Part shown: positions 9,886 through 57,541 of the stretch, one piece after another | Position numbering within the stretch: position 1 is the stretch's first letter | Layout of the letters: every line of letters starts with the position of its first letter | Assembly: GCF_000974805.1 (NCBI RefSeq) | Contig: NZ_BBQZ01000008.1 | Coordinates: 62,001-126,000 of the forward strand | DNA from: Demequina salsinemoris | GTDB taxonomy: Bacteria; Actinomycetota; Actinomycetes; Actinomycetales; Demequinaceae | Reading direction: 5' to 3' | DNA: 64,000 nt | Notes under the pieces: generated by a model | Seen by the model: only the letters and a program-made list of their open reading frames with translations | Database searches by the model: none | Told to the model about the DNA's origin: nothing | Program-made: the position numbers and the translations under genes

Positions 9886-10916
9886 GCGCGGGGACGATGC
9901 GCGCCTTCGTGATCACGGCGCCGGGCCGAGGCGAGGTGCAGGAGGTCGCCACGCCCGTCGCGGAGCCGGGGACGGTCGTCGTCCGGGTGGCCCGCGTAGG
10001 CGTGTGCGGCACCGACAGCGAGTTCTTCTCGGGGCACATGGCATACCTGGACTCCGGTCACGCAAGGTACCCGATCCGGATCGGCCACGAGTGGTGCGGC
10101 GAGGTGACTCAGATCGGTGCCGGGGTCGAGGAGACGTGGCTGGGTCGGCGCGTCACAGGTGACACCATGCTTGGCTGCCGCGAGTGCGCGCGGTGCCGCT
10201 CGGGGCGGCAGCACCTGTGCGAGCGACGCAGTGAGATCGGTATCCGCAACGGCTGGCCCGGCGCGCTCGCGGAGTACCTCATGGTTCCCGAGACGAGCCT
10301 GGTCCCGCTGTCGGATGCGGTCGACGACACTCTCGGCGCACTGGTGGAGCCGGGCGGCAACGCGCTCCGCTCCGTCCGGGGCGCGAACCTGAGCCCGGGC
10401 TCGAGACTGCTCGTCATCGGCGCGGGCGCGATCGGGCTTCTCGTCGGCCAGATGGCGCGCGCCGAGCTCGCCGAGGTGCACTTCCTCGCACGCTCCGAGC
10501 GATCGGCCGCCTTCGCACGAAGCCTGGGCTTCGCGCACGTGTTCCATGCGGACGCCCTCGCGGAGCAGCCTCTCTTCGACGCCGTGGTCGACGCGTCCAA
10601 CGACGCAGGTGCGCCCGCATTGGCCGCAAGCCTCGTCGAGCCAGGAGGCAGGCTGGTGTTCGTGGGCCTGGCAGGCACACCGAGCGTGTTGGACACGCGC
10701 ACCATCGCGCTCAACGACGTGACGGCTGTGGGGGTGCTGTCGGCTTCGGGAGGGCTCGAGGGCACTGCGGATCTCTACGCCTCCGGCGCGGTCGACCCGC
10801 GTCCGCTCGTGGCGGCCACGGTGGGACTTGACGACGTCGCGGCCGTGCTCCACGGGGAGCGGCCCGACGGCGCGGGCGCTGGACCGAAGATCCACGTCGA
10901 CCCGCAACGGCTGTAG
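9882..10916 (+). CDS. zinc-dependent medium-chain alcohol/sorbitol dehydrogenase
   Basis: A 339-344-residue NAD(P)-dependent MDR dehydrogenase, likely oxidising a polyol, sugar or alcohol. The catalytic zinc site is seen in VCGTDSEFFSGH and GHEWCGE, the four structural-zinc cysteines in GCRECARCRSGRQHLC, and the Rossmann motif in VIGAGAIGLLVG near residue 170. Two starts are possible: GTG at 9882, overlapping the previous stop in the same GTGA fashion as the other operon genes, or ATG at 9897, giving the conventional MRAFVIT N-terminus. That ATG lies inside a copy of the dispersed GGGACGATGC motif. In the pathway suggested by the next genes, this enzyme would make the sugar lactone. Confidence 0.85.
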   Translation: MSAGTMRAFVITAPGRGEVQEVATPVAEPGTVVVRVARVGVCGTDSEFFSGHMAYLDSGHARYPIRIGHEWCGEVTQIGAGVEETWLGRRVTGDTMLGCRECARCRSGRQHLCERRSEIGIRNGWPGALAEYLMVPETSLVPLSDAVDDTLGALVEPGGNALRSVRGANLSPGSRLLVIGAGAIGLLVGQMARAELAEVHFLARSERSAAFARSLGFAHVFHADALAEQPLFDAVVDASNDAGAPALAASLVEPGGRLVFVGLAGTPSVLDTRTIALNDVTAVGVLSASGGLEGTADLYASGAVDPRPLVAATVGLDDVAAVLHGERPDGAGAGPKIHVDPQRL

Positions 10917-10998
10917 AAGCAGGGGCTCCGACGCGACCGGTGGCACGATGAACGTGTCCCCGCCTTCGCGTAGAAGCACGCAAGGAATTGGATGACGT

Positions 10999-14497: not shown

Positions 14498-15331
14498 TCA
14501 GTCCTCGTCGGGCTCGACGGCGCGCCTGGCCGCGCGATACATCCACGCGCCGACGCACACGCTCGCCGCGACGACGACCAGGGTGAGGAGCACGGACTTC
14601 TGCGCCGCATCGTCCCTGAGGGCGACGGGCTTGTGGAAGCGCAGCATGCCCCAGCCGTTGTCGATCGCGGCGCGGCGCAGCGCGCGGTCGGGGTTGACCG
14701 CGAAGCCATGGCCGACCGCGGAGAGCATCGGAACGTCGGTGATCGAGTCCGAGTACGCGTAACTGCCGGGCAGGTGGTATCCGCGCCGATCCGCGAGCTC
14801 CTTGATCGCGTCCGCCTTCGCCTGCCCGTACATGTAGCTCGTGATGCCGCCCGTGTACTTGCCGTCGGCCACCTCGAGCGTCGAGGCGAGGATCCCGTCG
14901 GCGCCGAGCAGGTCGGCGATGGGCTGCACCACGTCCTCGACGGACGCGCTCACGATGATGACGTCGCGGCCGTTGAGCTGATGGCGGCGGATGAGGTCGA
15001 GCGCCTCGGCGTAGACCACCGGGTCGATGTGCGCGTGGACGGTCTCCTCGACGATGCTGCGGACCTTTGCGACCTCCCACCCGGCGATGAGCTCGCTCAG
15101 CGCGTCGCGCAGACGGCTGGTCTGACGCTCGTCGGCGCCGCCGATCTGGAACAGCAGCTGCGCGTAGGCGGCTCTCACGGCATCGGTCCTGGTGAGGAGG
15201 CCCTCGGACAGGAATGACCGGCCGAACGCTGACGACGAGCTTGTCGCGATGATCGTCTTGTCCAGGTCGAAGAACGCGGCCGTGCGCACGGGCGTCCGCG
15301 GTGCGTGCTTGGAGCGGTATCTACCGGCCAT
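14498..15331 (-). CDS. HAD-IB family phosphatase with C-terminal membrane anchor
   Basis: A 277-residue HAD superfamily subfamily IB (SerB-like) hydrolase. Motif I is FFDLDKTII near residue 20, motif II is IIVSASVEDVVQPIA near residue 125, and motif III/IV is AYSDSITDVPML near residue 195, all with intact aspartates. Residues about 243-265 form a hydrophobic membrane segment followed by a basic tail, as in actinobacterial proteins of this position. The ATG is chosen because GGAGG lies just upstream. In many actinobacteria this gene borders the Tad pilus locus, as here, usually with an ssd/CpaE-like gene between; none is visible in the 263-bp divergent gap. The substrate is unknown. Confidence 0.85.
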   Translation of the reverse strand: MAGRYRSKHAPRTPVRTAAFFDLDKTIIATSSSSAFGRSFLSEGLLTRTDAVRAAYAQLLFQIGGADERQTSRLRDALSELIAGWEVAKVRSIVEETVHAHIDPVVYAEALDLIRRHQLNGRDVIIVSASVEDVVQPIADLLGADGILASTLEVADGKYTGGITSYMYGQAKADAIKELADRRGYHLPGSYAYSDSITDVPMLSAVGHGFAVNPDRALRRAAIDNGWGMLRFHKPVALRDDAAQKSVLLTLVVVAASVCVGAWMYRAARRAVEPDED

Positions 15332-15594
15332 GGGAAGCCTCCTTCGATGCACACAGCGTATCCGGGACGGAGGCGAACGGGCCCGACCGGCGGGGTGTCC
15401 ACATCCCTCCGGGCGGGCCCGCCCACGAATAAGCGTACGGGCAGGGTCCGATGGGTGGCGAGAGCCTTGGTCCCGGTGGCCTCGCAGGGGGCGCAGTCCC
15501 CGGGCGTCGTCCACCGGACGATGCCGAGGCCGGGTTCTCCACCGATCATTCCTGGACGATGCATTGCCCGGGCGTGGTCGGGAAGCCTTGCCTC

Positions 15595-16620
15595 GTGCCC
15601 GCCGTTCCCGATCCCTCGTTGCCGGACGACTCGCCCGGCTGGGCGGGCGCTCTTGGGCCGCTGCTCGCGCTTCCCGGGGTGACGGACGTGCTCGTCAACG
15701 GGCCCGCCGATGTGTGGGTGGATCGCGGCGAGGGCCTCGAGCGCGCGGACCTCGGGATACGGGCCGGCCTCGCGACGCCCCGGGCGGTCCGGGATCTCGC
15801 GGTGCGGCTCGCGTCGCTCGCGGGACGGCGCCTGGACGATGCGGCGCCGTGCGTGGACGGGCGGCTGCCGGACGGGTCGCGCCTCCACGCAGTGCTTCCT
15901 CCCGTCGCGGACGGCTGCGCGGCGCTGTCGATCCGGCGCCTGCGAGCGGGAGCGCTCGACCCCCGCGAGCTGATCGCGACCGGCATGGTCTCCGACTCCG
16001 GCATGGCAGAGTTGAGAGCCCTCGTGCGAGCGCGGGCGTCGCTGCTCATCTCAGGGGCCACGGGTTCGGGCAAGACGACCCTGCTGACCGCGCTGCTGTC
16101 GCTCGCGGCCCCGACCGAGCGCATCGTCGTGATCGAGGAGGCGGGCGAGGTCGCTCCGGACCATCCCCACGTGGTGCGGCTCGTCGAGAGGCGGGCCAAC
16201 GTCGATGGTGCGGGAGCCGTGCCGCTGTCCGCCCTCGTGCGCGAGGCGCTCAGGATGCGACCCGATCGCGTGGTCCTCGGCGAGTGCCGCGGGGCCGAGC
16301 TGCGCGAGGTCCTGCTCGCCTTCAACACCGGGCATCGCGGCGGGCTCGTGACCATGCACGCCAACTCCGCCGCGGACGTGCCCGCGCGCCTCACCGCGCT
16401 GGGCGCGCTCGCGGGCATGGGGGCCGACGCCGTCGCCCTTCACGCCGCCGCGGCCTTCGATGCGGTGATCCACCTGGAGAGAGGCAAGGACGGGGTGCGG
16501 CGGGTGGTCGAGGTGACGCGGCTCGTGCTCGACGACGGGCGGCTCGTCGTGGGGACCGCCTCCGTGCGCGAGCCGGCGCGCGAGCGTGGTCCCGCCGCGA
16601 CCCCCGGGGGCGGGGCGTGA
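15595..16620 (+). CDS. tadA: Tad pilus assembly ATPase
   Basis: A CpaF/TadA-type secretion ATPase of about 341 residues that powers assembly of tight-adherence (Flp-like) pili at the inner face of the membrane. It shows LPGVTDVLVNGPADVWVDRGEGLERA near residue 22, the Walker A motif ISGATGSGKTTLL near residue 150, IVVIEEAGEV, the LREALRMRPDRVVLGECRG Walker B/Asp box region (here VREALRMRPDRVVLGECRG) and GLVTMHANSAADV His box. The start is uncertain: GTG at 15595 (GGGAAG upstream) begins just before the conserved part; ATG at 15559 lies inside a dispersed GGACGATGC motif, and ATG at 15451 would add a non-conserved 48 residues. It overlaps the next gene by GTGA. Confidence 0.88.
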   Translation: MPAVPDPSLPDDSPGWAGALGPLLALPGVTDVLVNGPADVWVDRGEGLERADLGIRAGLATPRAVRDLAVRLASLAGRRLDDAAPCVDGRLPDGSRLHAVLPPVADGCAALSIRRLRAGALDPRELIATGMVSDSGMAELRALVRARASLLISGATGSGKTTLLTALLSLAAPTERIVVIEEAGEVAPDHPHVVRLVERRANVDGAGAVPLSALVREALRMRPDRVVLGECRGAELREVLLAFNTGHRGGLVTMHANSAADVPARLTALGALAGMGADAVALHAAAAFDAVIHLERGKDGVRRVVEVTRLVLDDGRLVVGTASVREPARERGPAATPGGGA

Positions 16621-17564
16621 GGCGGCGCGGCGCGCCTCCGCCGTGGAGCGTGGCGGCACCGGTCCAGGCGAGCGCGCCCGCGCTCGCGACCGCGGCCGGC
16701 CTGCTGCGGGCGGGTGCGCCCCCGGCGACCGCCTGGGCCGCGGCCGGGCTCGGCGCACCTGGACCCGACGGGGTGCCGGGAGGCGCAAGCCGCGAGCTCG
16801 CGGCCGCGGCGCTCCTGGCCCACACCGCCGGCTGCCCGCTCGCTCCCACGGTCGAGGCGCTCGCCGAGCGGCTCGCCGACTCCGAGGATGCGGTCGCCCG
16901 AGCGGAGGCCGGGGCCGCCGGGGCTCGGCTCTCGGCGCGGATCCTCGGGTTCCTGCCGGTCGTGGGTGTGGTGTTCGCAGCGATCATCGACCCCGGGGCC
17001 GTGGGGTGGCTCGTTGGCGGCCCCTTCGGGCTGTCATGCCTGGCCGGGGGGCTCTTGCTGACGCTCACCGGGCGGCGGTGGCTGACCGTGATGGTGCGGC
17101 GAGCGACCTCACCGCCCACGCCCGAGGACGCGGCGGTGCCGTTCGCCCTCATGCTCACGGAGGTCGCCGTCGGCGCTGGGGTGGACGTCCGCGGGGCGCT
17201 CGCGGGCGTGGGTGGCGCGCTCGAGTCCATGGCTCCCGAGGCGTCCGCGGCGTTGCTCGATGCCGCCGACCGGCTCGCCGACGGCGAGCGGTGGGATGAC
17301 GCGTGGGAGGGCGCGCCCGAGCGGCTCGAACCGCTGCGCGAGGCCCTGCGCTGGTGCTGGGTCGCGGGCGGATCGCCCGGGCCCGCGCTGCGGTCGGCCC
17401 GGGTCGCGCTCGAGCGATCCGAGGCGTCGGCACGCGAGGGACGCGTGGCGGAGCTCGGCGTGAAGGTCGCGCTGCCGTTGTCGCTGTGCCTCCTGCCCGC
17501 CTTCGTGCTCGTCGGTGTCGTGCCGATGCTCGCGGCGGTCGCGTCCGGGGCGGGGCTCGGCTGA
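16617..17564 (+). CDS. Tad pilus inner-membrane platform protein, TadB-TadC-like fusion
   Basis: A 315-residue membrane protein with two type II secretion F-like halves. Residues about 20-160 (ALATAAGLLRAGAPP..., then a pair of hydrophobic segments near 110-155) look like TadB, and residues about 175-315 (FALMLTEVAVGAGVDVRGAL..., ending in a hydrophobic hairpin) look like TadC. In most actinobacteria these are separate genes. Each half is shorter than a full partner, so this may be a fusion that replaces both. The GTG start overlaps the TadA stop (GTGA). It should form the membrane platform on which the ATPase acts. Confidence 0.78.
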   Translation: MRRRGAPPPWSVAAPVQASAPALATAAGLLRAGAPPATAWAAAGLGAPGPDGVPGGASRELAAAALLAHTAGCPLAPTVEALAERLADSEDAVARAEAGAAGARLSARILGFLPVVGVVFAAIIDPGAVGWLVGGPFGLSCLAGGLLLTLTGRRWLTVMVRRATSPPTPEDAAVPFALMLTEVAVGAGVDVRGALAGVGGALESMAPEASAALLDAADRLADGERWDDAWEGAPERLEPLREALRWCWVAGGSPGPALRSARVALERSEASAREGRVAELGVKVALPLSLCLLPAFVLVGVVPMLAAVASGAGLG

Positions 17565-17717
17565 TGAGAAGCGCGAGCCCGCGTGGTCCGCTCGCCAGTG
17601 CGTCGTGCGGTCTCCACAGGCCTCGCGCGACGCGTGCGCATCCACCGATTCTCATCTCGCCAGGGTTGGCCCCCGCGCGTCGGGCGAGTCTGGAGGCGCC
17701 AACAGAGAGGAGCCGAC

Positions 17718-17930
17718 ATGGCTGGCGACGAAGTGCAGGCGGGAGCCCCGGAACAGGCGTCCGAGGAGTCGACGGGAGGGCGGTGGAGAGACGACGGCAT
17801 GGCCACCGTCGAGTACGCGATGGTGACGGTCGCCGCGGCGGCCTTCGCGGGCGTGCTCGCGGTGCTCGTGAGGTCCGACGAGGTGCGCGAACTGCTCGCC
17901 GGTGTCATCAGGGGAGCGTTCGGGGGGTGA
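17718..17930 (+). CDS. DUF4244-type Flp pilin-like protein
   Basis: A 70-residue small protein with a hydrophilic 27-residue leader, a Gly-Met-Ala-Thr-Val-Glu-Tyr junction (DGMATVEYAM) and one hydrophobic helix. This matches type IV/Flp prepilins, which are cut after Gly, with Glu at +5 of the mature chain, and the DUF4244 family found next to TadBC genes in actinobacteria. It should be the main pilus subunit. A strong GAGAGGAG ribosome-binding site precedes the ATG, consistent with high expression. It lies 153 bp after the platform gene and overlaps the TadE-like gene. Confidence 0.8.
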   Translation: MAGDEVQAGAPEQASEESTGGRWRDDGMATVEYAMVTVAAAAFAGVLAVLVRSDEVRELLAGVIRGAFGG

Positions 17931-18256
17931 GGGGTTCCCGTCGCGACGACGGGTCGGCGGCCGTCGAGCTGGCGGCCGCCATGCCCGCCGTCGTCATGCT
18001 GCTCGGCGCGGTCGCGTCCGCCGGGGTCTGGGGAGCCAGCCAGGTGGCGGCGCAGCAGGCCGCGGGAGCGGCCGCCCGCGCGGTGCTCGTGGGCGACGCG
18101 GGTCAGGCGGCGACCGAGGCGGCCGGTGCGGTCGGTGGTGGCGCATCGGTCTCGGTCTCCGACAGCGGCGGTCGCGTGGTCATCACGGTGACCGTCCCTG
18201 CGGGAGGCTGGCTGCCCGACGCTGTCGCGAGCGTGACCCTTACGGACGCGCCGTGA
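17927..18256 (+). CDS. TadE-like pseudopilin
   Basis: A 109-residue TadE-like protein: short basic N-terminus, then GSAAVELAAAMPAVVMLLGAVASAG, the classic TadE start in which a Glu precedes a single membrane helix. The outer part is short and Gly/Ala/Val-rich. TadE proteins are minor pseudopilins of the Tad system. The GTG start overlaps the pilin stop (GTGA) and the stop overlaps the next GTG, so the last three pilus genes are coupled. Confidence 0.82.
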   Translation: MRGSRRDDGSAAVELAAAMPAVVMLLGAVASAGVWGASQVAAQQAAGAAARAVLVGDAGQAATEAAGAVGGGASVSVSDSGGRVVITVTVPAGGWLPDAVASVTLTDAP

Positions 18257-18600
18257 GCGGGAGGACGCCGCGCGATGAGGGCTCCGCGGTGCCGCTCGTC
18301 GTCGGGCTGGTCGCGGTGGGTGTCGCGCTCGCGCTCGCCGTCGCGGGCCTCGCGGGGGAGGCGGCGCGCGACGCTCGCGCGCAGTCCATCGCCGATGTCA
18401 TCGCGCTCAAGGGTGCCTTCGCTGAACGCCGAGAGGGGAGCGGATGCGCGGTCGCTGGCGAGGCGGCGGCGGCGAACGGCGCGCACCTGATCGGGTGCAG
18501 CGCCGACGCGGACGGGGACGTGACCGTCACGGTTGAGCTCGACGCGGGGCTGCTCGGGGTGCGCGCGGTCTCGCGCGCGGGTCCCGCCTTCGCCCCCTGA
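18253..18600 (+). CDS. Rv3654c-family TadE-like protein
   Basis: A 115-residue protein with a short charged N-terminus, GSAVPLVVGLVAVGVALALAVAGLAGEAARDARAQSIAD and two cysteines (near residues 61 and 76). This is the helicase/secretion-neighbourhood TadE-like family that closes Tad loci in actinobacteria. The role is probably minor pseudopilin or assembly factor. It ends the operon; a weak hairpin follows. Confidence 0.8.
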   Translation: MSGRTPRDEGSAVPLVVGLVAVGVALALAVAGLAGEAARDARAQSIADVIALKGAFAERREGSGCAVAGEAAAANGAHLIGCSADADGDVTVTVELDAGLLGVRAVSRAGPAFAP

Positions 18601-18630: not shown

Positions 18631-18720
18631 AGCCGCGCCCGCCTGGGCGCATGAGCCCGAGCATCGTCCATCTCGCAGGCGACCAGGGCCGACGGCCCGG
18701 CACCCGGCGACGCGTTGCTC

Positions 18721-20081: not shown

Positions 20082-21959
20082 TCAGCGCGTCGTGACCTGG
20101 ACCTCACCGAGCGAGGTCCACACCGTCAGCTCGAGCCAGTCGTAGTCGTACTCGCTGGCGTCGGGCCCGACCGCATCGGCGGAGCCGACGCTCACCCCCG
20201 CGTCGGAGTCCGAGCCGCCTCCCGAGCCGCTATCCGTGGAATCCTCGGACCACGTCTCCTCGACCATGTCTTCGACGGCGGGCTCGTCGTAGCCGTACGA
20301 AGTCCCGGAGTCCAGGTAGATCGAGCGCTGGTCGAGCACCGTGTAGGTGCCCGCGCGCAGCGCCGACGTGTAGTCGCAGGTGTCGACGTCGCGCCACAGG
20401 TAGTCGCCATCCACGGAAGCGCCCGCCTCCAGGTACTCGCTGGAGTACACGGGCATGATCTCGATGGACGATGCGGTGTCGCCCGACTCGGTCGCCACTG
20501 CCGCCTCCTCGGCGTCCGTCGCGGCCATCCACGTCTCGTCGTACCGGTTGACGTCCGCGGGGTAGGCCTGCGCGACGACGCGGCCGTCCTGCACGAGCAG
20601 CAGGTTCGGCTGCGCGTCCGACCAGTACGGCAGCGTCCAGTCGGAGACGTTCGTCACCTGAGCCGAGACCTCGGGGTTGCCCTCGACGACCCACCCGTAA
20701 CTGACCTCGACGGGCGATGGCATCGAGACGCTCACGTCGAGCAGGTCGATCTCGGCCGACTTCGCGGGGAAGGTCGACTCCTCGCCGTCGTACGAGCAGC
20801 CGTACCAGGAGCGTTCCCACAAGGTGCTGTCGGAGTCCTCGCTGTCGCTGGTCAGGACGACGCGCTGGGTCCCGGCCGCCATGTCCCACGCCCCGGCGAG
20901 ACCGTCCTCGTAGAGCGACCGCGCGGTGTCGGGGGTGAGCAGGTCGTCGTAGGCCACGCTCGGCTCGACGGTCGGGTCGCCGGTGCCGAGGTAGTCGGCG
21001 AAGGGCTCGGCGACCGCGTCGCCCGCGATCGTGAACGCCATCGCGTCGGACACGACGCGGAAGCCCTGGTCGGCGGCGATCCCGCTCGAGGCCGTGGCGT
21101 CGTCGGAGGTCGCCGCGTCGTCGGGCTCGAGCGTGGGCTCGACCGGGTCGGTCGAGGCGCCCTCCTCGGAGTCCTTCTCGTTAGGATCCGTCTCCCCAGG
21201 GACGATGCTCGTGTCGGGCGAGGTCGTCGCCGTCGCCTCGGGCGTCGCTGACCCGCTCGCCGAGAGGTCCGGCTCGGGAACGGGCCCGGTGGCCCAGTAC
21301 TCCTGGGCGAGCACCACCTCGTAGTCGCCGGCCGGCAGCGGCTCGCCGTCCCAGCAGTTCACGAGCGCGACCGACGCCGAGTCGGTCGTCGACTCGCCCG
21401 CGGCGAGCTCGATGACCACCAGGTCGGAGGTGAACGCATCGTCGGGGCCGGGGTAGGTGCCGACGACGATCCCGTCCCACAGCACGTAGGCGTAGGTGAG
21501 CGGCCGCCCCGTCTGGAGCGACACGTCCTCGAGCGCGGTGGTGGTGGCCTCGAACCCGAGCGAGCCTCCCGACTCGCCCGCGTCGGATGCCAGGGAGCCG
21601 GACAGCGACACCGTCGGCGTCCCGTACTCGAGCCCGTCAAGCGTCGATCCGCACCCGCCCACGGCGAGCATCGTCCCGGAGGCGTCCGACTCCGCGAGCG
21701 ACTCGTCGCCGGCGATCGCGGAATCTGCCGACGCGGCCGTGTCGGCCGCGCCCGAGGACGCCATCCCTCCCAGGTGAGGCGCGATCTGCACAGCACCCAA
21801 CCCCAGCAGCCCGACGCCGAGGACGGCCGCGGCCGTGAAACCCGAGGTCCGCATCGTCCTGCGTCGCTGCACCCGTCGCGCGGCCTCGACCGCCGAGACG
21901 TGCAAGCCATCCACGGGGGCGTCGTCAGCCGCGCCGTGCAAGGAATCCGAAAGCCTCAT
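20082..21959 (-). CDS. large membrane-anchored exoprotein paired with ECF sigma factor
   Basis: A 625-residue protein with a short cytoplasmic N-terminus (about 37 residues, including RRVQRRR), one membrane segment (FTAAAVLGVGLLGLGAVQ) and a very long acidic Ser/Thr/Asp/Glu-rich outer part. Repeated short segments with a single Cys (for example GGCGSTLDGLEYG, LVNCWDGEPLPAGDYEVVLA, DTCDYTSALRAGTYTVLD) suggest beta-sandwich domains with disulfides. No HxxxCxxC zinc anti-sigma motif is visible in the short N-terminus. It starts two bases after the sigma gene stop, so it probably acts as regulator or sensor of that sigma factor (inference). A second pair of the same layout is at 37866-39832. Confidence 0.7.
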   Translation of the reverse strand: MRLSDSLHGAADDAPVDGLHVSAVEAARRVQRRRTMRTSGFTAAAVLGVGLLGLGAVQIAPHLGGMASSGAADTAASADSAIAGDESLAESDASGTMLAVGGCGSTLDGLEYGTPTVSLSGSLASDAGESGGSLGFEATTTALEDVSLQTGRPLTYAYVLWDGIVVGTYPGPDDAFTSDLVVIELAAGESTTDSASVALVNCWDGEPLPAGDYEVVLAQEYWATGPVPEPDLSASGSATPEATATTSPDTSIVPGETDPNEKDSEEGASTDPVEPTLEPDDAATSDDATASSGIAADQGFRVVSDAMAFTIAGDAVAEPFADYLGTGDPTVEPSVAYDDLLTPDTARSLYEDGLAGAWDMAAGTQRVVLTSDSEDSDSTLWERSWYGCSYDGEESTFPAKSAEIDLLDVSVSMPSPVEVSYGWVVEGNPEVSAQVTNVSDWTLPYWSDAQPNLLLVQDGRVVAQAYPADVNRYDETWMAATDAEEAAVATESGDTASSIEIMPVYSSEYLEAGASVDGDYLWRDVDTCDYTSALRAGTYTVLDQRSIYLDSGTSYGYDEPAVEDMVEETWSEDSTDSGSGGGSDSDAGVSVGSADAVGPDASEYDYDWLELTVWTSLGEVQVTTR

Positions 21960-24980: not shown

Positions 24981-25023
24981 GCATCGTCCTGACCCACGCA
25001 TCGTCCTGACCCACGCATCGTCC
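24981..25023. repeat. three tandem copies of GCATCGTCC in a 17-bp period
   Basis: GCATCGTCC occurs at 24981, 24998 and 25015, separated by the same spacer TGACCCAC. It is the tightest cluster of the dispersed motif, right after the pyrophosphatase stop codon. Another copy, inverted, lies at 25191-25200. No gene is seen in 24975-25285; the stretch holds these repeats, a long palindrome and the MFS promoter region. Confidence 0.85.
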
Positions 25024-25133: not shown

Positions 25134-25285
25134 GAGCCCGGCGCTGCGGGAGCAGGGGAGTGCCTGGGTGGGGAACGACGATGCTGGGCCGGGACGATGC
25201 GGGAGACCGGTTCGCGCGTCCCGATCCTCCGACATTCCCAAAGTTTGGACACACGTCCGAAATGGTGCGGTGAGAGGATGCGCGC

Positions 25286-39832: not shown

Positions 39833-39892
39833 CCCGAGAATCGGCGACGACGAACGCCCAAGGAAGGCGGTGCATCGTCCCCGTGCGCGGGC

Positions 39893-40937: not shown

Positions 40938-40957
40938 GCATCGTCCCTGGACGATGC
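40938..40957. repeat. head-to-head pair of the dispersed motif forming a hairpin
   Basis: GCATCGTCCCTGGACGATGC: two complete inverted copies separated by two bases, between the oxidoreductase and tmk. The arms are 9 bp and perfect. It may act as terminator-like structure or as a paired protein-binding site. Confidence 0.75.
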
Positions 40958-43006: not shown

Positions 43007-44572
43007 ATGACCTCACGCCCGACCCGCTCCATCGCGCTCGCCGCCGTCTACGTCCTCGCGCTGTCGGCGTGCACGTCCGGGACGTCCGACGCGACCGACG
43101 AGGAGGGTGGCTCGTCAGGCGCCGACGCATCGTCCGCCCCCGTCGCGACGTCGGCCGAGGTGCCAACGGGCTTCGAGTCGTACTACGACCAGGAGCTGTC
43201 CTGGGAGGACTGCGGCGACTACGAGTGCGCGACGGTCGAGGTGCCGCTCGACTGGACCGATCCGTCGAGCGACGCGATCGAGATCGCGATCAACCGCGCC
43301 GCGGCCACGGACCAGGACAGCAAGGTCGGCTCGCTGCTGATCAACCCCGGCGGGCCGGGGGGCTCCGGGCTCGACTTCCTCGACTACTTCGTGTCGTACG
43401 CAGGCGACGCGGTCGCCGAGTCCTACGACGTCATCGGCTTCGACCCGCGCGGCGTGGGCGAGTCGACCGCGGTCGACTGCGGCGACGGCCAGACCCTCGA
43501 CGACTTCTACATCCCCGACTACCCGTCCGCGACCCAGGCCGATCTGGATGAGGCGGATCAGCGCGTCGCCGACTTCGCGGCCGGCTGCGAGGAGATCTCG
43601 GGAGACCTCATGGCCAACGTCGACACGGTGTCCGCGGCGCGCGACATGGACGTGATCCGCGCGGCGCTCGGCGACGACGAGCTCAACTACCTCGGCTCGA
43701 GCTACGGCACCCAGCTCGGCGCGACCTACGCGCAGCTCTACCCCGACACCGTGGGGCACATGGTCCTCGACGGCGCGGTCGACTTCCTGCTGTCCGACGA
43801 GGAGCAGGGCGTGGGCCAGGCCGAGGGCTTCGAGCAGGCGCTCACCTCGTTCATCGAGTACTGCCAGGGCACCGGCACGTGCCCGCTGTCGTCGGACGTC
43901 GAGACCGCGCGTGAGCAGATCGGCGACCTGGCCACGAGCGCGCTCGAGAACCCCCTCCCGAGCGGCTACGACGACTACGACGTCAACGGCAACCTCATGG
44001 TCTACGGCATCGTCGTCACGCTGTACTCCGAGGACAGCTGGGACTACCTGATCCAGGCGATCGAGGAGGTCTACTCTCAGGGCACCGCGTCGATCTTCTA
44101 TCAGCTCGCGGGCTTCTACCTGGACCGCGACGCGGACTCCGGCGAGTGGACGTCGAACTCGAGCGTCGCCTTCACCGCGATCGGCTGCACCGACGGCAGC
44201 GCGGGCGAGGACTGGACGATCGACGACCAGGAGGAACTGACCGCCGCGATGGAGGAGGCCTCGCCGACCTTCGGCTGGTGGTTCGCGACCGGAGCCGGAT
44301 GCTCGGCCTGGCCGTGGCCCGCGCACCAGACGATCGACGAGCTCGACTACCCGGACGACGCGAACACCATCCTGGTGGTCGGCACGACCGGCGACCCGGC
44401 CACCCCGTACGAGTGGGCGGAGAACCTCACGGACGAGCTCGGCAACGCCGAGCTGCTCACCTACGACGGCGAGGGTCACACGGCGTACGGGCGCTCCAAC
44501 TCGTGCATCAACGACGCCGTGGACGCCTTCCTGGTGGACGGCACGGTGCCGGATTCGGGAACTGTCTGCTGA
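43007..44572 (+). CDS. secreted alpha/beta-hydrolase lipoprotein, tripeptidyl-aminopeptidase type
   Basis: A 521-residue exported serine hydrolase. The signal peptide ends in the lipobox LSAC (Cys near residue 22) followed by a Thr/Ser/Ala-rich linker containing a dispersed-motif copy (43127). The fold is that of actinobacterial tripeptidyl aminopeptidases: LLINPGGPGGSGLDFL near residue 110, GFDPRGVGESTAVDC near residue 145, nucleophile Ser in LGSSYGTQLGATYA near residue 230, Asp in VVGTTGDPATPYEWA near residue 463 and His in GEGHTAYGRSNSCI near residue 487. It should remove N-terminal tripeptides from peptides outside the cell. Confidence 0.9.
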   Translation: MTSRPTRSIALAAVYVLALSACTSGTSDATDEEGGSSGADASSAPVATSAEVPTGFESYYDQELSWEDCGDYECATVEVPLDWTDPSSDAIEIAINRAAATDQDSKVGSLLINPGGPGGSGLDFLDYFVSYAGDAVAESYDVIGFDPRGVGESTAVDCGDGQTLDDFYIPDYPSATQADLDEADQRVADFAAGCEEISGDLMANVDTVSAARDMDVIRAALGDDELNYLGSSYGTQLGATYAQLYPDTVGHMVLDGAVDFLLSDEEQGVGQAEGFEQALTSFIEYCQGTGTCPLSSDVETAREQIGDLATSALENPLPSGYDDYDVNGNLMVYGIVVTLYSEDSWDYLIQAIEEVYSQGTASIFYQLAGFYLDRDADSGEWTSNSSVAFTAIGCTDGSAGEDWTIDDQEELTAAMEEASPTFGWWFATGAGCSAWPWPAHQTIDELDYPDDANTILVVGTTGDPATPYEWAENLTDELGNAELLTYDGEGHTAYGRSNSCINDAVDAFLVDGTVPDSGTVC

Positions 44573-49130: not shown

Positions 49131-50372
49131 TCAGGACGCCCGACGAGTCAGCAGATCGGCCGCGGACGATGCGGGAGCGGCCGAGCCGATCGCCGCGCCC
49201 AGATCCATCGGCCAGCCCGTGTAGGCCTCGGCCAGGTAGGCGCGGCCGTGCTCGGAGTCGACGACGGAGCGCAGCTCGCCGAGCTGGCGCAGGCGGTCGT
49301 ACTCCGACGCGTCGGGGATCTGGTGCAGCATGCTCGTCATCCACCACGAGAAGTGCTGCGCCTTCCAGATGCGCTTGCGTGCCTCGTCGGCGAAGGAGTC
49401 GATCGGCCCGGAGTCCGAGCGGCCCAGCAGCGCCTCCAGGGCACGCGCCAGCACGACGACGTCCGCGACCGCGAGGTTCATGCCCTTCGCCCCGGTCGGG
49501 GGCACGGTGTGGGCGGCGTCGCCGACGATCGCGATCCGCCCGCGCTGCAGGTCCCGCGCGACGAAAGAGCGGAACGGCACCACGCCCTTCTGGAAGATCG
49601 GGCCCTTCTTCAGCTCGACCCCCGGCACGCGCCGGTCGAGCGTCTCCCAGATCTGCTGGTCGTTCATCGAGTCCGCGTCCATGTGCGGGTCGCACTGGAA
49701 GTACATGCGCTGGACGGTCTCGGACCGCTGGCTGATGAGCGCGAAGCCGTCGGGCGAGTTCGAGTAGATGAGCTCGTCGGCGCTCGGCGGGGCCTCGGTC
49801 AGGATGCCGAACCACCCGAACGGGTACTCGCGGAAGTAGCCCGCGTGCGACCCGGACAGGGCGGAGCGCACCACGGACCGCGACCCGTCGGCACCGACGA
49901 CGAAATCCGCCTCGACGTCGAGCTCGGCCCCCGCATCGTCCCTGGCGACGATCCTGGGCCGCTCGGAGTCGATGTCCTCGACCGCGTGCGCGGTGGCGCG
50001 GAACCGGATGTCCTGCCCGGCGGCGAGGCGCGCGGCGAGCAGGTCCTTGAGGGCCTCGTGCTGCGGGTAGAGCCACACGGACCGGCTGACGAGCCCGGCG
50101 AAGTCGATGCGGTGGCCGACGCCGTCGAAGCGCAGCTCGATGCCGTCGTGGCGGCTGCCGACGGTGTGCGCCCGCGAGCCGGGGATCGAGGCGAGGAGGT
50201 CGACGGTGTCCTGCTCGAGGATGCCGGCACGGATCGTCGACTCGATCTCCTCGCGCGAGCGGCGGTCGAGGATGACCGACTCGATGCCGGACTGGGCGAG
50301 CAGGTGGGAGAGGATCAGGCCCGCGGGGCCGGCGCCGACGATGGCGACCTGGGTGCGAACTGTCGAGGTCAC
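49131..50372 (-). CDS. pobA: 4-hydroxybenzoate 3-monooxygenase
   Basis: A 413-residue FAD-dependent aromatic hydroxylase that converts 4-hydroxybenzoate to protocatechuate with NAD(P)H and O2. The dinucleotide motif is VAIVGAGPAGLILSHLL (residues 9-25); ILDRRSREEIESTIRAGILEQ near residue 35 is characteristic of PobA; VGADGSRSVVRSA near residue 158 is the DG motif; and IVGDAAHTVPPTGAKGMNLAVADV near residue 280 is the FAD ribityl motif. The GTG start is supported by AAAGGAGA just upstream. The IclR gene lies immediately upstream on the same strand, with a palindromic operator between them. The product feeds the protocatechuate 4,5-cleavage genes at 53-57 kb. Confidence 0.94.
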   Translation of the reverse strand: MTSTVRTQVAIVGAGPAGLILSHLLAQSGIESVILDRRSREEIESTIRAGILEQDTVDLLASIPGSRAHTVGSRHDGIELRFDGVGHRIDFAGLVSRSVWLYPQHEALKDLLAARLAAGQDIRFRATAHAVEDIDSERPRIVARDDAGAELDVEADFVVGADGSRSVVRSALSGSHAGYFREYPFGWFGILTEAPPSADELIYSNSPDGFALISQRSETVQRMYFQCDPHMDADSMNDQQIWETLDRRVPGVELKKGPIFQKGVVPFRSFVARDLQRGRIAIVGDAAHTVPPTGAKGMNLAVADVVVLARALEALLGRSDSGPIDSFADEARKRIWKAQHFSWWMTSMLHQIPDASEYDRLRQLGELRSVVDSEHGRAYLAEAYTGWPMDLGAAIGSAAPASSAADLLTRRAS

Positions 50373-50495: not shown

Positions 50496-51248
50496 TCAAC
50501 TATCTCCGGCGAGCGCGGCCTCCACCTCGCGGGCGGCGCGGTGGAGCTCTTCGAGCGCGAGGGCCGTGGGGGCCTCACGCGGCAGCACCACGGACAGCGC
50601 GGCGGTCGCCCCGCTGATGCGGTCGCGCACGGGAACCGCGACGCCGGTCGACACCTCCTCGATGTACCCCGGCGCGATCGCGTGCCCGAGGCTGCGCACC
50701 TCCGCGAGCTTGCGCCGCACGGTGGCGGGGTCCGTGGGGGTCGCGGAGGTGAGGCGCCGCAGCGGTCGCGCGAGGACGCGCTCCTGCACGTCGGAGTCGG
50801 CGAAGGCCAGCAGTACCAGGCCGGACGATGTGGCGTGCAGCGGGAGACGGCCCGCGATCCGCGTGATGTTCGCGCCGGCGTCGGGGTCGCTGAGGCGCTC
50901 GAGGAACAGCGCCTCGTCCTGCTCGAGGATCGCGAGCTGCGTGTGCTCGCGCACGCGCGCCTGCACCCTCTCCATCGCGGGCATCGCGGCCTGCCTCACC
51001 CTCAGGGCGTGCGACGAGCGCGTCGCGAGCTCCCACAGCCGCAGCCCGACGCTGAGCCGCCCCTCGCCGTCGCGGTCCAGCAGTCCTGCGGATACCAGGT
51101 CGCTCACCACGCGGTGCGCGGTCGAAGACGGCAGCCCTGCGCGCCGTCCGACCTCGGACGCGGTCTGCACCGTCCGCGTCGGGGTGAACGTCTCGAGCAC
51201 CCGGACGATGCGGTCGGTCACCGAGTCGCCGGAGGGGGAGTTGGCCAC
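50496..51248 (-). CDS. IclR family regulator, PobR/PcaR-like
   Basis: A 250-residue IclR regulator. The N-terminal winged helix-turn-helix is DRIVRVLETFTPTRTVQTASEVGRRAGLPSSTAHRVVSDL (about residues 11-50). The C-terminal effector domain (from about residue 75) shows ILEQDEALFLERLSDP, LPLHATSSGLVLLAFA and GYIEEVSTGVAVPVRD, matching the IclR sensor fold. It should bind an aromatic acid such as 4-hydroxybenzoate or protocatechuate and control pobA; activation or repression cannot be told. The start codon is uncertain (GTG 51248 or an in-frame GTG six codons upstream), as no ribosome-binding site is clear. Confidence 0.85.
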   Translation of the reverse strand: MANSPSGDSVTDRIVRVLETFTPTRTVQTASEVGRRAGLPSSTAHRVVSDLVSAGLLDRDGEGRLSVGLRLWELATRSSHALRVRQAAMPAMERVQARVREHTQLAILEQDEALFLERLSDPDAGANITRIAGRLPLHATSSGLVLLAFADSDVQERVLARPLRRLTSATPTDPATVRRKLAEVRSLGHAIAPGYIEEVSTGVAVPVRDRISGATAALSVVLPREAPTALALEELHRAAREVEAALAGDS

Positions 51249-51326: not shown

Positions 51327-51977
51327 ATGTCGACGACGACGCCGTCGCCCTCCCTGAGATGGGCGCCCCTCACCGCCGAGCAGGTCGCGGACCTCCTCGC
51401 TCCGAGCGATGCTCGCTGGTGGCTGTCGGGCGGAGCTGCCCTGGACCGCTGGCTCGGCTCGCCGATCCGCGAGCGCGAGAACGTCGACGTCAGCACGATC
51501 CCGAGCGACCTCGGCGCGCTCGTCGAGGCGCTCCCGCCGGCGTACAGCGCGTGGGTTCCGGACGGCGACGGGTACATGCCGATCGCCGACGCCGCGGAGG
51601 ACGCCGACCTTCAGCCGGTCCTGATCAGGGACGATGCCGCCGAGGCATGGGTCCTGCGCGTGAACGTCGAGGACGGGGGCGCGAAGGCCTGGATGTACCG
51701 CCGCGACGCGCGGCTTCAGCTGCCGTGGGACCGCGTCGTGCTCGACATCGACGGGATCCCGACAGGGGCGCCCGAGGTGCAGCTGCTGTGGAAGTGCTTC
51801 AGTCCCCGGCCCGAGGACGACGCCGACAAGGAGGCGGTCGTGCCGAAGCTGTCTGACGAGGCGCGCCAGTGGTGGGAGCAGCAGCTGCTCCGGATCCACC
51901 CGCACTCGTCATGGACCATCCCCGTGCGGTCCCCGATGTTCCCGGCGCGCGCGAGCTGGAACAGGCCGCAGCGGTGA
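51327..51977 (+). CDS. nucleotidyltransferase-like protein (aminoglycoside adenylyltransferase-related)
   Basis: A 216-residue protein with the N-terminal pattern WWLSGGAALDRWLGSPIRERENVDVSTI (about residues 31-58), which resembles the GG...D.D core of the ANT(2'')/LinB-like nucleotidyltransferase group. The second acidic residue of the usual DxD is replaced (VDVS), so activity is uncertain. The remainder (RVNVEDGGAKAWMYRRD, LLWKCFSPRPEDDADKEAVVPKLSDEARQWWEQQL) matches the C-terminal helices of such proteins. It stands alone between the IclR and LysR genes, transcribed in the opposite direction to both, and is unlikely to belong to the aromatic pathway. Confidence 0.6.
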   Translation: MSTTTPSPSLRWAPLTAEQVADLLAPSDARWWLSGGAALDRWLGSPIRERENVDVSTIPSDLGALVEALPPAYSAWVPDGDGYMPIADAAEDADLQPVLIRDDAAEAWVLRVNVEDGGAKAWMYRRDARLQLPWDRVVLDIDGIPTGAPEVQLLWKCFSPRPEDDADKEAVVPKLSDEARQWWEQQLLRIHPHSSWTIPVRSPMFPARASWNRPQR

Positions 51978-53040: not shown

Positions 53041-53229
53041 GTGATCACCGATATCCCCGGTCGTGACACGCTCGCCCCGCAAGGCCGATGCGACTCGTGC
53101 GCTCTGCACGACGCGTGCCCCTCGGAGTCGAAGCGGGAAGCAGGCCCCACCGCGGACCAGGCGAGCGGCGCGCTCGCCGCCCGTCGCATCGTCCCCCTCC
53201 CTGAGCCCCGTCTCGCGGAGGCCTCCTGA
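53041..53229 (+). CDS. small Cys-containing protein at the head of the lig operon
   Basis: A possible 62-residue protein. The N-terminal half has CDSCALHDAC (a CxxCxxxxxC pattern, residues 18-27), suitable for metal or disulfide; the C-terminal half is Ala/Arg/Pro-rich and includes a dispersed-motif copy (53186). It starts with GTG behind AAGGA and its TGA overlaps the ligI ATG by one base, so it could be translated as a leader or partner of LigI. No family is recognised, and it may simply be a leader ORF. Confidence 0.4.
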   Translation: MITDIPGRDTLAPQGRCDSCALHDACPSESKREAGPTADQASGALAARRIVPLPEPRLAEAS

Positions 53230-55527: not shown

Positions 55528-56480
55528 CATCAGGCAGGACCCGCGTCGCGGTCGTCGGCGCCGCCGGCGCCTTCGGCATGAAGCACCTTGACGGACTCGC
55601 GAACATCCCCGACGCCGAGGTGACGGTGGTCGTCGGCACCAGGGAAGGGCCGACGCAGGCGGTCGCCGACAGGTACGGCGTCCCCCACGTCGTCCTCAGC
55701 TATGAGGAGGTCCTGACCAGGGACGATGTGGATGCCGTCATCCTTGCGACGCCGACCGGTCTTCACGCGGGTCAGACGCGGGCCGCGCTCGCGGCCGGCA
55801 AGCACGTCCAGGTCGAGATCCCTCTCGCGGACTCGCTCGCTGACGCCGAGGCGGCGCTCGCCGCTGCCGAGGCCTCGGATCGCGTCGCGATGGTCGGGCA
55901 CACGCGGCGGTTCAACCCGTCGCATCAGTGGGTCCACCAGCGGATCGCGGCGGGCGAGTTCGGGATCCAGCAGATGGACGTGCAGACGTACTTCTTCCGG
56001 CGCACCAACACGAACGCCAAGGGTGAGCCGCGCTCGTGGACCGACCACCTCCTGTGGCACCACGCCGCCCACACCGTGGACCTGTTCGCCTACCAGGCGG
56101 GACGCATCGTCCAGGCGAACGCACTCCAAGGCCCGATCCATCCGGACCTCGGCATCGCGATGGACATGTCGATCCAGCTGAAGGCCGAATCGGGCGCCAT
56201 CTGCACGCTGTCGCTGTCGTTCAACAACGACGGGCCGTTCGGCACGTTCTTCCGCTACATCGGCGACACCGGCACCTACATCGCCCGGTACGACGACCTC
56301 GTGAACGGCAAGGAGGAGCCGATCGACGTGTCGCAGGTCGCCGTCAGTATGAATGGGATCGAGCTCCAGGACCGCGAGTTCATCGCGGCGATCCGCGAGG
56401 GCCGCGAGCCGAACTCGTCCCTCGCCCAGGTGATCGACTGCTACCGCGTGCTCGGCTCGCTGGAGGAGCAGCTGGCGTGA
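55524..56480 (+). CDS. ligC: 4-carboxy-2-hydroxymuconate-6-semialdehyde dehydrogenase
   Basis: A 318-residue Gfo/Idh/MocA-fold dehydrogenase that oxidises the hemiacetal of the ring-cleavage product to 2-pyrone-4,6-dicarboxylate with NADP. The Rossmann start is VAVVGAAGAFGMKHLDGL (residues 8-25); VQVEIPLADS near residue 93 replaces the usual EKP motif, as in LigC; MVGHTRRFNPSHQWVHQRI and SWTDHLLWHHAAHTVDLF near residue 172 are typical. The gene lies between the dioxygenase and aldo/keto reductase genes with four-base overlaps on both sides, so the whole set is one operon. Confidence 0.92.
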   Translation: MTSGRTRVAVVGAAGAFGMKHLDGLANIPDAEVTVVVGTREGPTQAVADRYGVPHVVLSYEEVLTRDDVDAVILATPTGLHAGQTRAALAAGKHVQVEIPLADSLADAEAALAAAEASDRVAMVGHTRRFNPSHQWVHQRIAAGEFGIQQMDVQTYFFRRTNTNAKGEPRSWTDHLLWHHAAHTVDLFAYQAGRIVQANALQGPIHPDLGIAMDMSIQLKAESGAICTLSLSFNNDGPFGTFFRYIGDTGTYIARYDDLVNGKEEPIDVSQVAVSMNGIELQDREFIAAIREGREPNSSLAQVIDCYRVLGSLEEQLA

Positions 56481-57541
56481 CGGTGGTCGGGGAGGACGAG
56501 CCCAGGGACGATGCGGGGGCGGCGCCCGGTTTCACGGAGACGGCGCCGGTCCTCGCCCTTCCTCGCGTCGGCCTTGGGTGCATGTCGCTCAGCCACGCGT
56601 ACGGCGTCGCGCCGCCGCCCGAGGAGGGCGAGCGGATGCTGCGCGCCGCGCTCGACGCGGGCGCGCGCCTCCTTGACACCGCAACGCTGTACGGAGGAGG
56701 CCGCAACGAGGAGCTCGTCGGCCGTGCCATCCGCGGGCGCCGCGACGAGGTTGTGCTCGCGAGCAAGGGCGGGATGGCGATGGTCGACGGCGTGCGCACG
56801 ATCGACGGCCGCCCCGAGACGCTGCGCGCCCAGGTCGACGCCTCGCTGACGAGGCTCGGCGTCGACCGCATCGACCTGTACTACCTGCACCGATGGGACA
56901 GGAAGGTGCCCGTCGCGGAGAGCGTCGGCGCGCTCGCCGAGGCTGTCGCCGCCGGCAAGATCGGCGCGATCGGGCTGTCCGAGGTGGGCGTGGAACGCCT
57001 GAAGCAGGCGCTCGCGGAGGCGCCGATCGCGGCGGTCCAGAACGAGTACTCGCTGTGGAGCCGCAACCCCGAGCTCGGCATGCTCGAGGCGACCCGCGCG
57101 GCGGGCGTCGCGCTCGTCGCGTTCTCGCCTGTGGCCAGGGGCTTCCTCGCCGACGCGATCCACGACCCCGCGGCTCTCGCGGAGAAGGACATCCGCCGCC
57201 CGATGCCGCGCTTCCAGCCCGAGCACTGGCCCGCGAACGCCGCGCTGCTGCCGGCCTGGCGCGCGCTCGCCGCCGAGGCCGGCTGCACGCCCGCGCAGCT
57301 CGCGCTGGCCTGGGTGATCTCGCGCGGCCCGCACGTCACCGCGATCCCCGGCACCACGAGCATCGTCCATGTGCGCGAGAACCTGGCCGCCGAGAGACTG
57401 GCGGCCTCGGGGCTCGCCGTCGACGCGGTCCTCCTCGTGAGGGCCGGGGAGCTGATCGACACCGCCACGGTGTCGGGGCCGAGATATCCCGCGCAGCAGT
57501 CGGCGGAGGTCGACGCGGAGGCGTTCGAGCCCGTCGCGTGA
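56477..57541 (+). CDS. aldo/keto reductase at the end of the lig operon
   Basis: A 354-residue aldo/keto reductase. The catalytic residues are seen as Asp and Tyr in RLLDTATLYGGGRNEELVG near residue 64, Lys in VVLASKGGMAM near residue 94 and His in LYYLHRWDRKVP near residue 138; the NADPH pocket is seen in AIPGTTSIVHVRENLAA near residue 292. The GTG start overlaps the ligC stop; the first 25 residues (including EDEPRDDAGAAPG) are encoded by a dispersed-motif copy and are not conserved. It is probably an accessory reductase acting on aldehydes or quinones of the pathway; no step of the standard 4,5-cleavage route needs it. Confidence 0.88.
   Translation: MTVVGEDEPRDDAGAAPGFTETAPVLALPRVGLGCMSLSHAYGVAPPPEEGERMLRAALDAGARLLDTATLYGGGRNEELVGRAIRGRRDEVVLASKGGMAMVDGVRTIDGRPETLRAQVDASLTRLGVDRIDLYYLHRWDRKVPVAESVGALAEAVAAGKIGAIGLSEVGVERLKQALAEAPIAAVQNEYSLWSRNPELGMLEATRAAGVALVAFSPVARGFLADAIHDPAALAEKDIRRPMPRFQPEHWPANAALLPAWRALAAEAGCTPAQLALAWVISRGPHVTAIPGTTSIVHVRENLAAERLAASGLAVDAVLLVRAGELIDTATVSGPRYPAQQSAEVDAEAFEPVA

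What the first reader, a model, noticed from the sequence alone, without database searches (positions are those of the whole stretch)
9891..57368. Dispersed short motif GGACGATGC/GCATCGTCC, strongly over-represented
By eye I count 37 exact copies of this 9-mer (both orientations, 18 and 19), starting at 9892, 15554, 15834, 18661, 20466, 21200, 21668, 21851, 24981, 24998, 25015, 25192, 26801, 26837, 28639, 28714, 29647, 31277, 32284, 33255, 36128, 38456, 38665, 39872, 40938, 40949, 42535, 42828, 43127, 49164, 49933, 51203, 51629, 53186, 56104, 56506 and 57360. Base composition (about 70% GC) predicts roughly one. Many extend to GGGACGATGC or GGGACGATGCGGG. Roughly a third lie between genes, far more than the intergenic share. 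Orientation is even, unlike Chi or KOPS. Copies are absent from 1-9.8 kb, 43.2-49.1 kb and 57.4-64 kb, so it tracks some regions and not others. Possible roles: DNA uptake signal, binding site for an architectural protein, or a tiny mobile element.
Basis: seen in the sequence. Interest (0 to 1): 0.82.

Follow-up and report, generated by a model that had tools for sequence, protein, structure and literature searches.

The report
Probable DNA-uptake signal in Demequina
A nine-letter DNA word is scattered about 1,860 times through the genome of this Demequina bacterium, relatives carry variants of the same word, and it is probably a tag by which these bacteria recognise and import DNA of their own kind, something known to me only from two families of Gram-negative bacteria.

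Summary
Observation confirmed: 41 exact GGACGATGC in the window (not 37), 2.2-2.4 expected. The genome, a Demequina (high-GC Gram-positive), holds 931+933 copies against 9+14 of the reversed word. Codons do not explain it: 191 in genes against 29.9 under synonymous shuffling, 73 between genes against 0.9. Strands are locally even; flanks add little.

Relatives show 'dialects' that follow the tree: GGACGATGC is strong in 16 of 47 family genomes, GGCCGATGC in 18, CCGACGCTG in one; three close sisters have few copies of any. This is the signature of DNA uptake sequences (DUS/USS). The genus has ComEA, ComEC, DprA and Tad/Flp pilus loci (one in the window), the transformation machinery of Micrococcus luteus. 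In 7 of 43 tad-2 loci a serine-integrase element lies inside a pilus gene (one less sure), and such elements lack the motif (2 seen, 19.2 expected; flanks 22 against 19.2).

Best reading: a DUS-like self-DNA tag of a Tad-pilus transformation system (0.75). Transformability, preference and receptor are inferred. Against: the machinery is equally present in motif-poor genomes. Two other Micrococcales genera show dispersed words of their own.

The parts
8828..8836 (-). motif copy, coding
9892..9900 (+). motif copy, straddles a gene start
14607..14615 (-). motif copy, coding
15516..15524 (+). motif copy, between genes, upstream of tad-1
15554..15562 (+). motif copy, between genes, upstream of tad-1
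15834..15842 (+). motif copy, inside tadA
18661..18669 (-). motif copy, between genes, after tad-1
20466..20474 (+). motif copy, coding
21200..21208 (+). motif copy, coding
21668..21676 (-). motif copy, coding
21851..21859 (-). motif copy, straddles a gene start
24981..25023 (-). three tandem motif copies, 17-bp pitch (24981, 24998, 25015), between genes
25192..25200 (+). motif copy, between genes
26801..26809 (-). motif copy, coding
26837..26845 (-). motif copy, coding
28639..28647 (+). motif copy, coding
28714..28722 (+). motif copy, coding
29647..29655 (+). motif copy, coding
31277..31285 (-). motif copy, between genes
32284..32292 (+). motif copy, between genes
33255..33263 (-). motif copy, between genes
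35320..35328 (-). motif copy, inside topA
36128..36136 (-). motif copy, between genes
38456..38464 (-). motif copy, coding
38665..38673 (+). motif copy, coding
39872..39880 (-). motif copy, between genes
40938..40957 (.). inverted pair of motif copies (40938-, 40949+): 9-bp complementary arms with 2 bases between, between genes
42535..42543 (+). motif copy, coding
42828..42836 (+). motif copy, coding
43127..43135 (-). motif copy, coding
49164..49172 (+). motif copy, coding
49933..49941 (-). motif copy, coding
51203..51211 (+). motif copy, coding
51629..51637 (+). motif copy, coding
53186..53194 (-). motif copy, between genes
56104..56112 (-). motif copy, coding
56506..56514 (+). motif copy, coding
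57360..57368 (-). motif copy, coding
15679..16620 (+). tad-1 TadA/CpaF-type pilus ATPase (start uncertain)
   Evidence: Pfam T2SSE 8.8e-49
16650..17564 (+). tad-1 TadB/C-type platform protein
   Evidence: Pfam T2SSF 1.7e-9
17583..17930 (+). tad-1 Flp-like pilin (DUF4244; start uncertain)
   Evidence: Pfam PF14029 2.7e-20
17927..18256 (+). tad-1 TadE-like minor pilin, candidate reader
   Evidence: Pfam TadE 8.7e-5
18250..18600 (+). tad-1 TadF-like protein, candidate reader (no Pfam match; named by place and look)

Best explanation
GGACGATGC (extended form in this genome about CMRG-GACGATGC-GG) is a DNA uptake sequence: a tag on the bacterium's own DNA. A DNA-binding component at the cell surface, probably a minor pilin of the Tad/Flp pilus or ComEA, prefers DNA that carries it; the Tad pilus and ComEA bring that DNA to ComEC, which imports one strand; DprA and RecA recombine it. 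Because tagged alleles enter and replace untagged ones more often, copies build up wherever the sequence can bear them, most densely between genes. When the receptor's preference drifts, the genome follows, which gives dialects between clades. Shown here: the excess, its independence of codon usage, strand evenness, dialects on the tree, hairpin pairs, scarcity in integrated elements, presence of the machinery. Inferred: that Demequina is transformable, that uptake prefers the motif, and which protein reads it.
For: 81-fold over the reversed word genome-wide; 191 in genes against 29.9 by synonymous shuffling and 73 between genes against 0.92; 8.2% of GAT and 5.2% of GCA codons in the 445-kb sample lie in the motif. 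Strands near even in the longer contiguous stretches. Dialects: GGCCGATGC up to 2018 copies (G031, control 110); CCGACGCTG 1062 in G037 (control 50); dialects follow a 40-genome tree, with a genome of both words (G018: 1294 and 664) at the base of the A clade. Inverted pairs 11 bp apart: 3 seen, mean 0.08 in 2000 random placements (largest 3); such pairs are also known for DUS (recalled). Elements inside tad-2: 2 copies against 19.2 expected, host DNA beside them 22 against 19.2. ComEC, DprA and the Flp-like pilin each in 46 of 47 family genomes. M. luteus, same order, needs both its tad clusters for transformation (PMC4322843, passages). Serine-integrase elements inside tadA or tadC of tad-2 in 7 of 43 loci, a pattern that PMC4774983 (passages) ties to transformation genes.
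Against: No experiment shows transformation or uptake preference in Demequina; the search for Demequina with competence found no such paper (listing). The machinery is present in motif-poor genomes too (G004 and G043, close sisters of this one; G026 has no tad-2 ATPase match), so presence does not track the motif. One-mismatch copies are hardly in excess except at the first base and for T at the last (408 against 369 in all). Site positions are little conserved: 13 of 80 alignable cells (41 sites by 14 loci) exact within the A clade, and C-dialect loci carry the C form at only 2 of 45 alignable window sites, the A form at none. Motif density is also low in the genes with the most typical codon usage (0.27 per kb). 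This genome's own tad-2 ATPase gene is interrupted. Tandem 17-18-bp arrays are not a feature I recall for DUS/USS.
Confidence: 0.75

Rival explanations
1. Binding site of an abundant cytoplasmic DNA-binding protein (nucleoid-organising, replication, repair or segregation) that selects for thousands of sites, as KOPS, matS or Chi do.
For: Even spread; 3-fold higher density between genes; same-strand pairs at 17-18-bp pitch, 12 against 0.17 expected, would suit arrays of bound protein.
Against: Chi and KOPS are oriented with replication (recalled); here strands are near even in the longer stretches. Close sisters G004 and G043 do with few copies. Genome-wide dialect shifts and scarcity in mobile elements fit a self/non-self tag better. 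No preference for promoters.
Confidence: 0.13
2. Mutation- or repair-driven word, as proposed for the cyanobacterial HIP1 octamer (recalled): a methyltransferase or biased repair keeps generating the sequence without a role.
For: Similar density to HIP1 (recalled); dialects could reflect a changed methyltransferase; 4-kb bins with low GC have fewer.
Against: HIP1 is a palindrome (recalled), this word is not; one-mismatch neighbours are hardly in excess, while a mutational bias should leave a trail (inference).
Confidence: 0.08
3. Ordinary codon-pair or compositional effect of a 70% GC genome.
For: The Asp-Asp-Ala frame is the commonest (83 of 191 coding copies).
Against: Synonymous shuffles give 8.4 in that frame and 29.9 in all; intergenic copies are 80-fold above a Markov-2 model; relatives of similar GC have few.
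Confidence: 0.01
4. Remnants or copies of a tiny mobile element.
For: Some tandem arrays share the bases between the copies.
Against: Flank information falls to background within about 4 bases upstream and 16 downstream; no boundary was seen; copies lie in all six reading frames of genes.
Confidence: 0.02

Closest known systems
DNA uptake sequence (DUS) dialects of Neisseriaceae (Frye et al. 2013, PMC3630211)
   Same: Short non-palindromic word, 943-5918 copies per genome, variants of few letters, dialects that follow the species tree, a genome with two dialects, family members without any (abstract and section 'DUS dialects' read).
   Different: Other phylum and cell envelope, unrelated sequence; type IV pilus and ComP there, Tad/Flp pilus here and no receptor known; uptake preference untested here.
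Uptake signal sequence (USS) of Pasteurellaceae
   Same: Nine-base core, dispersed in coding and non-coding DNA at about this density (recalled; core length also in the abstract of PMC1626085, listing).
   Different: Sequence and phylum; the extension here is G-rich, not the A/T tracts that I recall for USS. The USS receptor is itself only predicted (ComN; PMC12616744, start of abstract and two passages).
Tad/Flp-pilus-dependent natural transformation of Micrococcus luteus (PMC4322843)
   Same: Same order; two tad loci plus comEA/comEC.
   Different: That paper does not use the term 'uptake sequence' (0 occurrences).
HIP1 octamer of cyanobacteria (recalled)
   Same: Genome-wide dispersed word at similar density.
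   Different: HIP1 is a palindrome; no dialects of this kind recalled.

Membership tests
DNA uptake sequence (DUS/USS) | Short word in hundreds to thousands of copies, far above codon and Markov expectation | tested here: met
   1864 copies, reversed word 23; coding 191 vs 29.9, intergenic 73 vs 0.92
DNA uptake sequence (DUS/USS) | Both strands alike, coding and non-coding | tested here: met
   931/933; near even in the longer stretches, 14/7 in the 37-kb one of contig 12
DNA uptake sequence (DUS/USS) | Dialects in relatives that follow phylogeny | tested here: met
DNA uptake sequence (DUS/USS) | Depleted in recently acquired mobile DNA | tested here: met
   2 vs 19.2 in 6 elements, flanks of 5 of these loci 22 vs 19.2; three elements were seen in part only
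DNA uptake sequence (DUS/USS) | Host has competence machinery (pilus, ComEA, ComEC, DprA) | tested here: met
   but equally in motif-poor genomes
DNA uptake sequence (DUS/USS) | Copies one base off also in excess | tested here: inconclusive
   408 vs 369; clear excess only at base 1 and for T at base 9
DNA uptake sequence (DUS/USS) | One orientation favoured in reading frames, copies towards gene ends (abstract of PMC2346458) | tested here: inconclusive
   same strand 104, opposite 87; fifths of gene length 26-20-22-14-22 and 24-13-9-20-21
DNA uptake sequence (DUS/USS) | DNA with the motif is taken up or transforms better | not testable with these tools
   needs an experiment
DNA uptake sequence (DUS/USS) | Cognate surface receptor | not tested
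   candidates only: tad minor pilins, ComEA
Chi / KOPS | Orientation bias along replication | tested here: not met
   window 19/22, contig 14 (126 kb) 38/46
HIP1 | Palindromic octamer (recalled) | tested here: not met
   the word is not its own complement (direct)
Dispersed mobile repeat (REP/MITE) | Conserved unit with boundaries beyond the core | tested here: not met

The most novel reading that the evidence does not exclude
Sequence-tagged self-DNA uptake is not confined to two proteobacterial families: it also arose in high-GC Gram-positive bacteria on a Tad/Flp pilus, with dialects in Demequina and unrelated tags in at least two other Micrococcales genera, and mobile elements counter it by lodging inside the tad-2 pilus genes.
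Probability: 0.5. Interest if true: 0.92.

Novelty: new variant of a known kind. Interest (0 to 1): 0.83.

Why it matters
If true, recognition of self DNA by an uptake sequence evolved independently in Gram-positive bacteria with another kind of pilus. That makes the debate on why uptake sequences exist (drive, mate choice, side effect of a receptor) testable by comparison, gives a set of species (not known to me as pathogens) with natural dialect switches and losses in which to find the receptor, and suggests a practical aid (add the tag) for transforming actinobacteria that are hard to modify. The elements inside tad-2 are an independent sign that this pilus imports DNA.

Tried and rejected
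1. Loss of tad genes as the cause of motif loss: I first read G043 as lacking its tad-1 pilin genes; one search found the pilin gene about 1.1 kb outside the stretch that I had fetched, and (L260) shows pilin, TadE and TadF there. Retracted. G026 has no tad-2 ATPase match and G004 has an element in TadC, but motif-bearing G000, G010, G016, G017, G021 and G025 are interrupted too, so no association is claimed.
2. ComEC in two pieces in G037: holA is in two pieces there as well, so sequencing error is as likely; not used.
3. In-place conversion of A sites to C sites between clades: not supported (C form at 2 of 45 aligned cells).
4. Promoter or terminator role: density is alike in divergent, convergent and co-directional gaps (1.85, 1.85, 1.53 per kb).
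5. CGTCGGTGA, promising in one 20-kb sample of f17, is at a like level in G000 (316 copies; 379-689 in 13 f17 genomes): background.
6. Structure prediction was not run: without a DNA complex it would not have named a reader.
7. Samples of other families: three of 20 contigs (G050, G055, G060) were too short and were dropped before the k-mer scan. Other words with z of about 9 or more in that scan (f8, f13, f4) were not followed.
8. Tree: 40 of 47 genomes; G035, G036, G039, G040, G041, G045 and G046 had no stretch fetched around comEC.
9. Of the 80 loci (Demequina and two near relatives) were used; 45 of other bacteria were not. L264 (around dprA of G000) was fetched and not analysed.
Full report
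What was checked. The whole genome (3.21 Mb, 20 contigs; window = contig 13, 62001-126000) holds 931 forward and 933 reverse copies, the reversed word 9 and 14; the ten-mer GGGACGATGC 349 and 340 against 4 and 3. The organism is a Demequina: the window's topoisomerase I matches Demequina records best, and contigs of several genomes that genome-search runs the same genus have exactly the lengths of named Demequina contigs.

Not codon usage. In a 445-kb sample of this genome (the window and 20 stretches) genes were called with a simple codon-usage caller of my own (starts are approximate). Genes hold 191 copies; shuffling synonymous codons within each gene gives 29.9 (40 shuffles). Between genes there are 73 in 49 kb against 0.92 by a Markov-2 model, three times the density in genes. 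Copies occur in all six frames, one of them only once; 8.2% of GAT and 5.2% of GCA codons lie inside the motif. In the window 15 of 41 lie between genes, 24 in genes, 2 straddle.

Anatomy. The hard core is GACGATGC: single-base variants are not clearly in excess except at the first base and for T at the last (408 against 369 over all 27 variants). Flanks add a weak CMRG before and GG after, fading within about 16 bases. Strands are near even in the longer contiguous stretches (window 19/22, contig 14 38/46; the 37-kb stretch of contig 12 has 14/7), which speaks against Chi and KOPS. Spacing is near exponential apart from two excesses: same-strand pairs at 17-18 bp (12; uniform placement mean 0.17, largest 3 of 2000) and head-to-head pairs at 11 bp (3; mean 0.08, largest 3). 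Gaps between divergent, convergent and co-directional genes are alike. Density is lowest in genes of low GC3 (0.26 per kb, against 0.64 in the fourth quintile) but also low in those with the most typical codon usage (0.27), so it is not a simple marker of foreign genes. Two of the longest motif-free stretches hold, by eye, nitrate-assimilation and transporter/hydantoinase-like genes.

Dialects. In 47 Demequinaceae genomes GGACGATGC is strong (929-1864 copies) in 16 and 13-275 in the other 31. Pooled loci from poorer species showed another word, GGCCGATGC, 190 against 15.5; genome-wide it has 584-2018 copies in 18 of the others (reversed word 44-110). A third form, CCGACGCTG, in G037 within about GNCCGACGCTG, has 1062 copies there (control 50), and weaker counts of 404 in G034 (67), 363 in G026 (103) and 245 in G033 (49) (logos). 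The three align as G-N-[A/C]-CGA-[T/C]-GC. Ten genomes fall below my thresholds for all three words, though some of these (G012, G013: 409 and 472 GGCCGATGC) are still well above control. On a tree of LeuS, HolA, RpsT and LepA for 40 genomes the dialects fall into clades; G018, at the base of the A clade, has both words (1294 and 664); G000 and G028 have the A word while their sisters G043, G004 and G026 have 156, 245 and 96 copies of it.

Outside the family. Among 273 other genomes of the order (both words together) none reaches the density of the strong Demequina genomes (about 0.4-0.8 per kb); the highest are in family f20 (G278 454 copies in 1.9 Mb, 0.24 per kb; G098 599 against 57 of the reversed word), so f20 may hold something related that I did not follow.

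Machinery. The window itself carries a Tad/Flp pilus locus at 15.6-18.6 kb (T2SSE, T2SSF, DUF4244 pilin, TadE). A second locus (tad-2) and leuS-degV-degV-comEA-comEC-holA lie elsewhere (ComEA and ComEC by Pfam, the rest named by eye). ComEC, DprA and the pilin are each found in 46 of 47 genomes. In Micrococcus luteus, of the same order, both tad clusters are needed for transformation (PMC4322843, passages). The machinery does not separate motif-rich from motif-poor genomes.

Mobile elements. In this genome tadA of tad-2 is split by 8.2 kb with a large serine integrase gene at one edge (Resolvase and Recombinase domains). Of tad-2 loci from 43 genomes (one search lists no TadA-2 match for G011, G026, G033 and G046) seven hold such an integrase at or near a break: TadA at about residue 84 (G010), 129-131 (G025, G000), 222 (G017), 294-324 (G021), TadC at about 242 (G016; integrase 7 kb from the break and cut by the stretch, so less sure) and 281 (G004). 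Several loci were cut by contig or stretch ends, so more may exist. In the six whose host has a strong or fair motif, the element stretches hold 2 copies against 19.2 expected at host density (Poisson 9e-7), the host DNA beside five of them 22 against 19.2; the far ends of three elements (G010, G016, G025) were not seen and the end of the stretch was used. Insertion of unlike elements into competence genes at several sites is described, and ascribed to escape from transformation, in PMC4774983 (passages).

Interpretation. The set of properties is that of DNA uptake sequences: Frye et al. list eight dialects in Neisseriaceae with 943-5918 copies, a genome with two dialects and family members without any (PMC3630211, abstract and one section). 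I therefore take the word as an uptake sequence of a Tad-pilus transformation system at 0.75. The strongest points against are that the machinery is also present where the motif is scarce, that single-mismatch copies are hardly in excess, and that site positions are poorly conserved (13 of 80 aligned cells exact within the A clade), although fast turnover is also what a drive would give (inference).

Wider. A 13-20-kb sample from each of 17 other genomes of the order suggested several words; I followed three. CCGAGGCGG reaches 2081 copies in one genome of a genus (f7/g9, control 144; but 145 in another of its genomes, and 417 against 145 in G000; in 140 kb of G153 73 in genes against 18.1 and 6 between genes against 0.8). 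CGGATGCCT has 1215 and 1420 copies in two genomes of f19/g23 against 6 and 11 of the reversed word. The third (f17) is background. These are leads.

In print. Searches of the held open-licence library for Demequina with competence, uptake signal sequence with Actinobacteria and natural transformation (one review, not opened), DNA uptake sequence with Actinomyces (two papers, not opened), with Micrococcus and others, Flp pili with Actinobacteria and uptake sequences (PMC6370729, passages only) and DNA uptake sequence with Actinomycetota (none) listed no report of such a motif in this phylum; the listed papers were judged by title and abstract unless said otherwise, and subscription journals and preprints are mostly not held.

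Noticed in passing
L214:1014-9244 (G000:C16); L263, L287, L259, L262 with L300, L215, L288: Large serine integrases with their elements sit inside tad-2 pilus genes in seven Demequina genomes (G016 less sure), at about six different places in tadA and tadC.
   Followed up: partly
unnamed genus f7/g9 (G052, G153, G166, G218, G260; L224, L241-L250): CCGAGGCGG (about CGCCGAGGYGG) is dispersed in up to 2081 copies in some genomes and near control in others of the genus, possibly a second uptake-sequence-like word.
   Followed up: partly
unnamed genus f19/g23 (G066, G267, G189): CGGATGCCT has 841-1420 copies against 6-12 of the reversed word in these three genomes, possibly a third such word; some copies stand 9 or 18 bp apart.
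   Followed up: partly
unnamed family f20 (G098, G278, G238): GGMCGATGC is 8-10-fold above the reversed word, the nearest thing to the Demequina motif outside its family.
   Followed up: no
L159:3702-6742 compared with the same genes: ComEA and ComEC differ far more than their neighbours (G000 to G028: 72% and 69% identity, LeuS part 96%, HolA 94%).
   Followed up: no
window 58337-64000: A surface protein of more than 1,800 residues with SpaA-type prealbumin-like folds runs off the window; no motif copy lies in it.
   Followed up: no
G034 samples L142-L144 and L116: Besides GCCGACGC, the stretch ATCAAGCCATT recurs about 7 times in 64 kb.
   Followed up: no
L260 (G043), L201 (G004), L207-L209: The gap between tadB and the pilin gene in tad-1 holds unrelated genes in several species (ABC transporter, membrane protein, ClC channel).
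   Followed up: no
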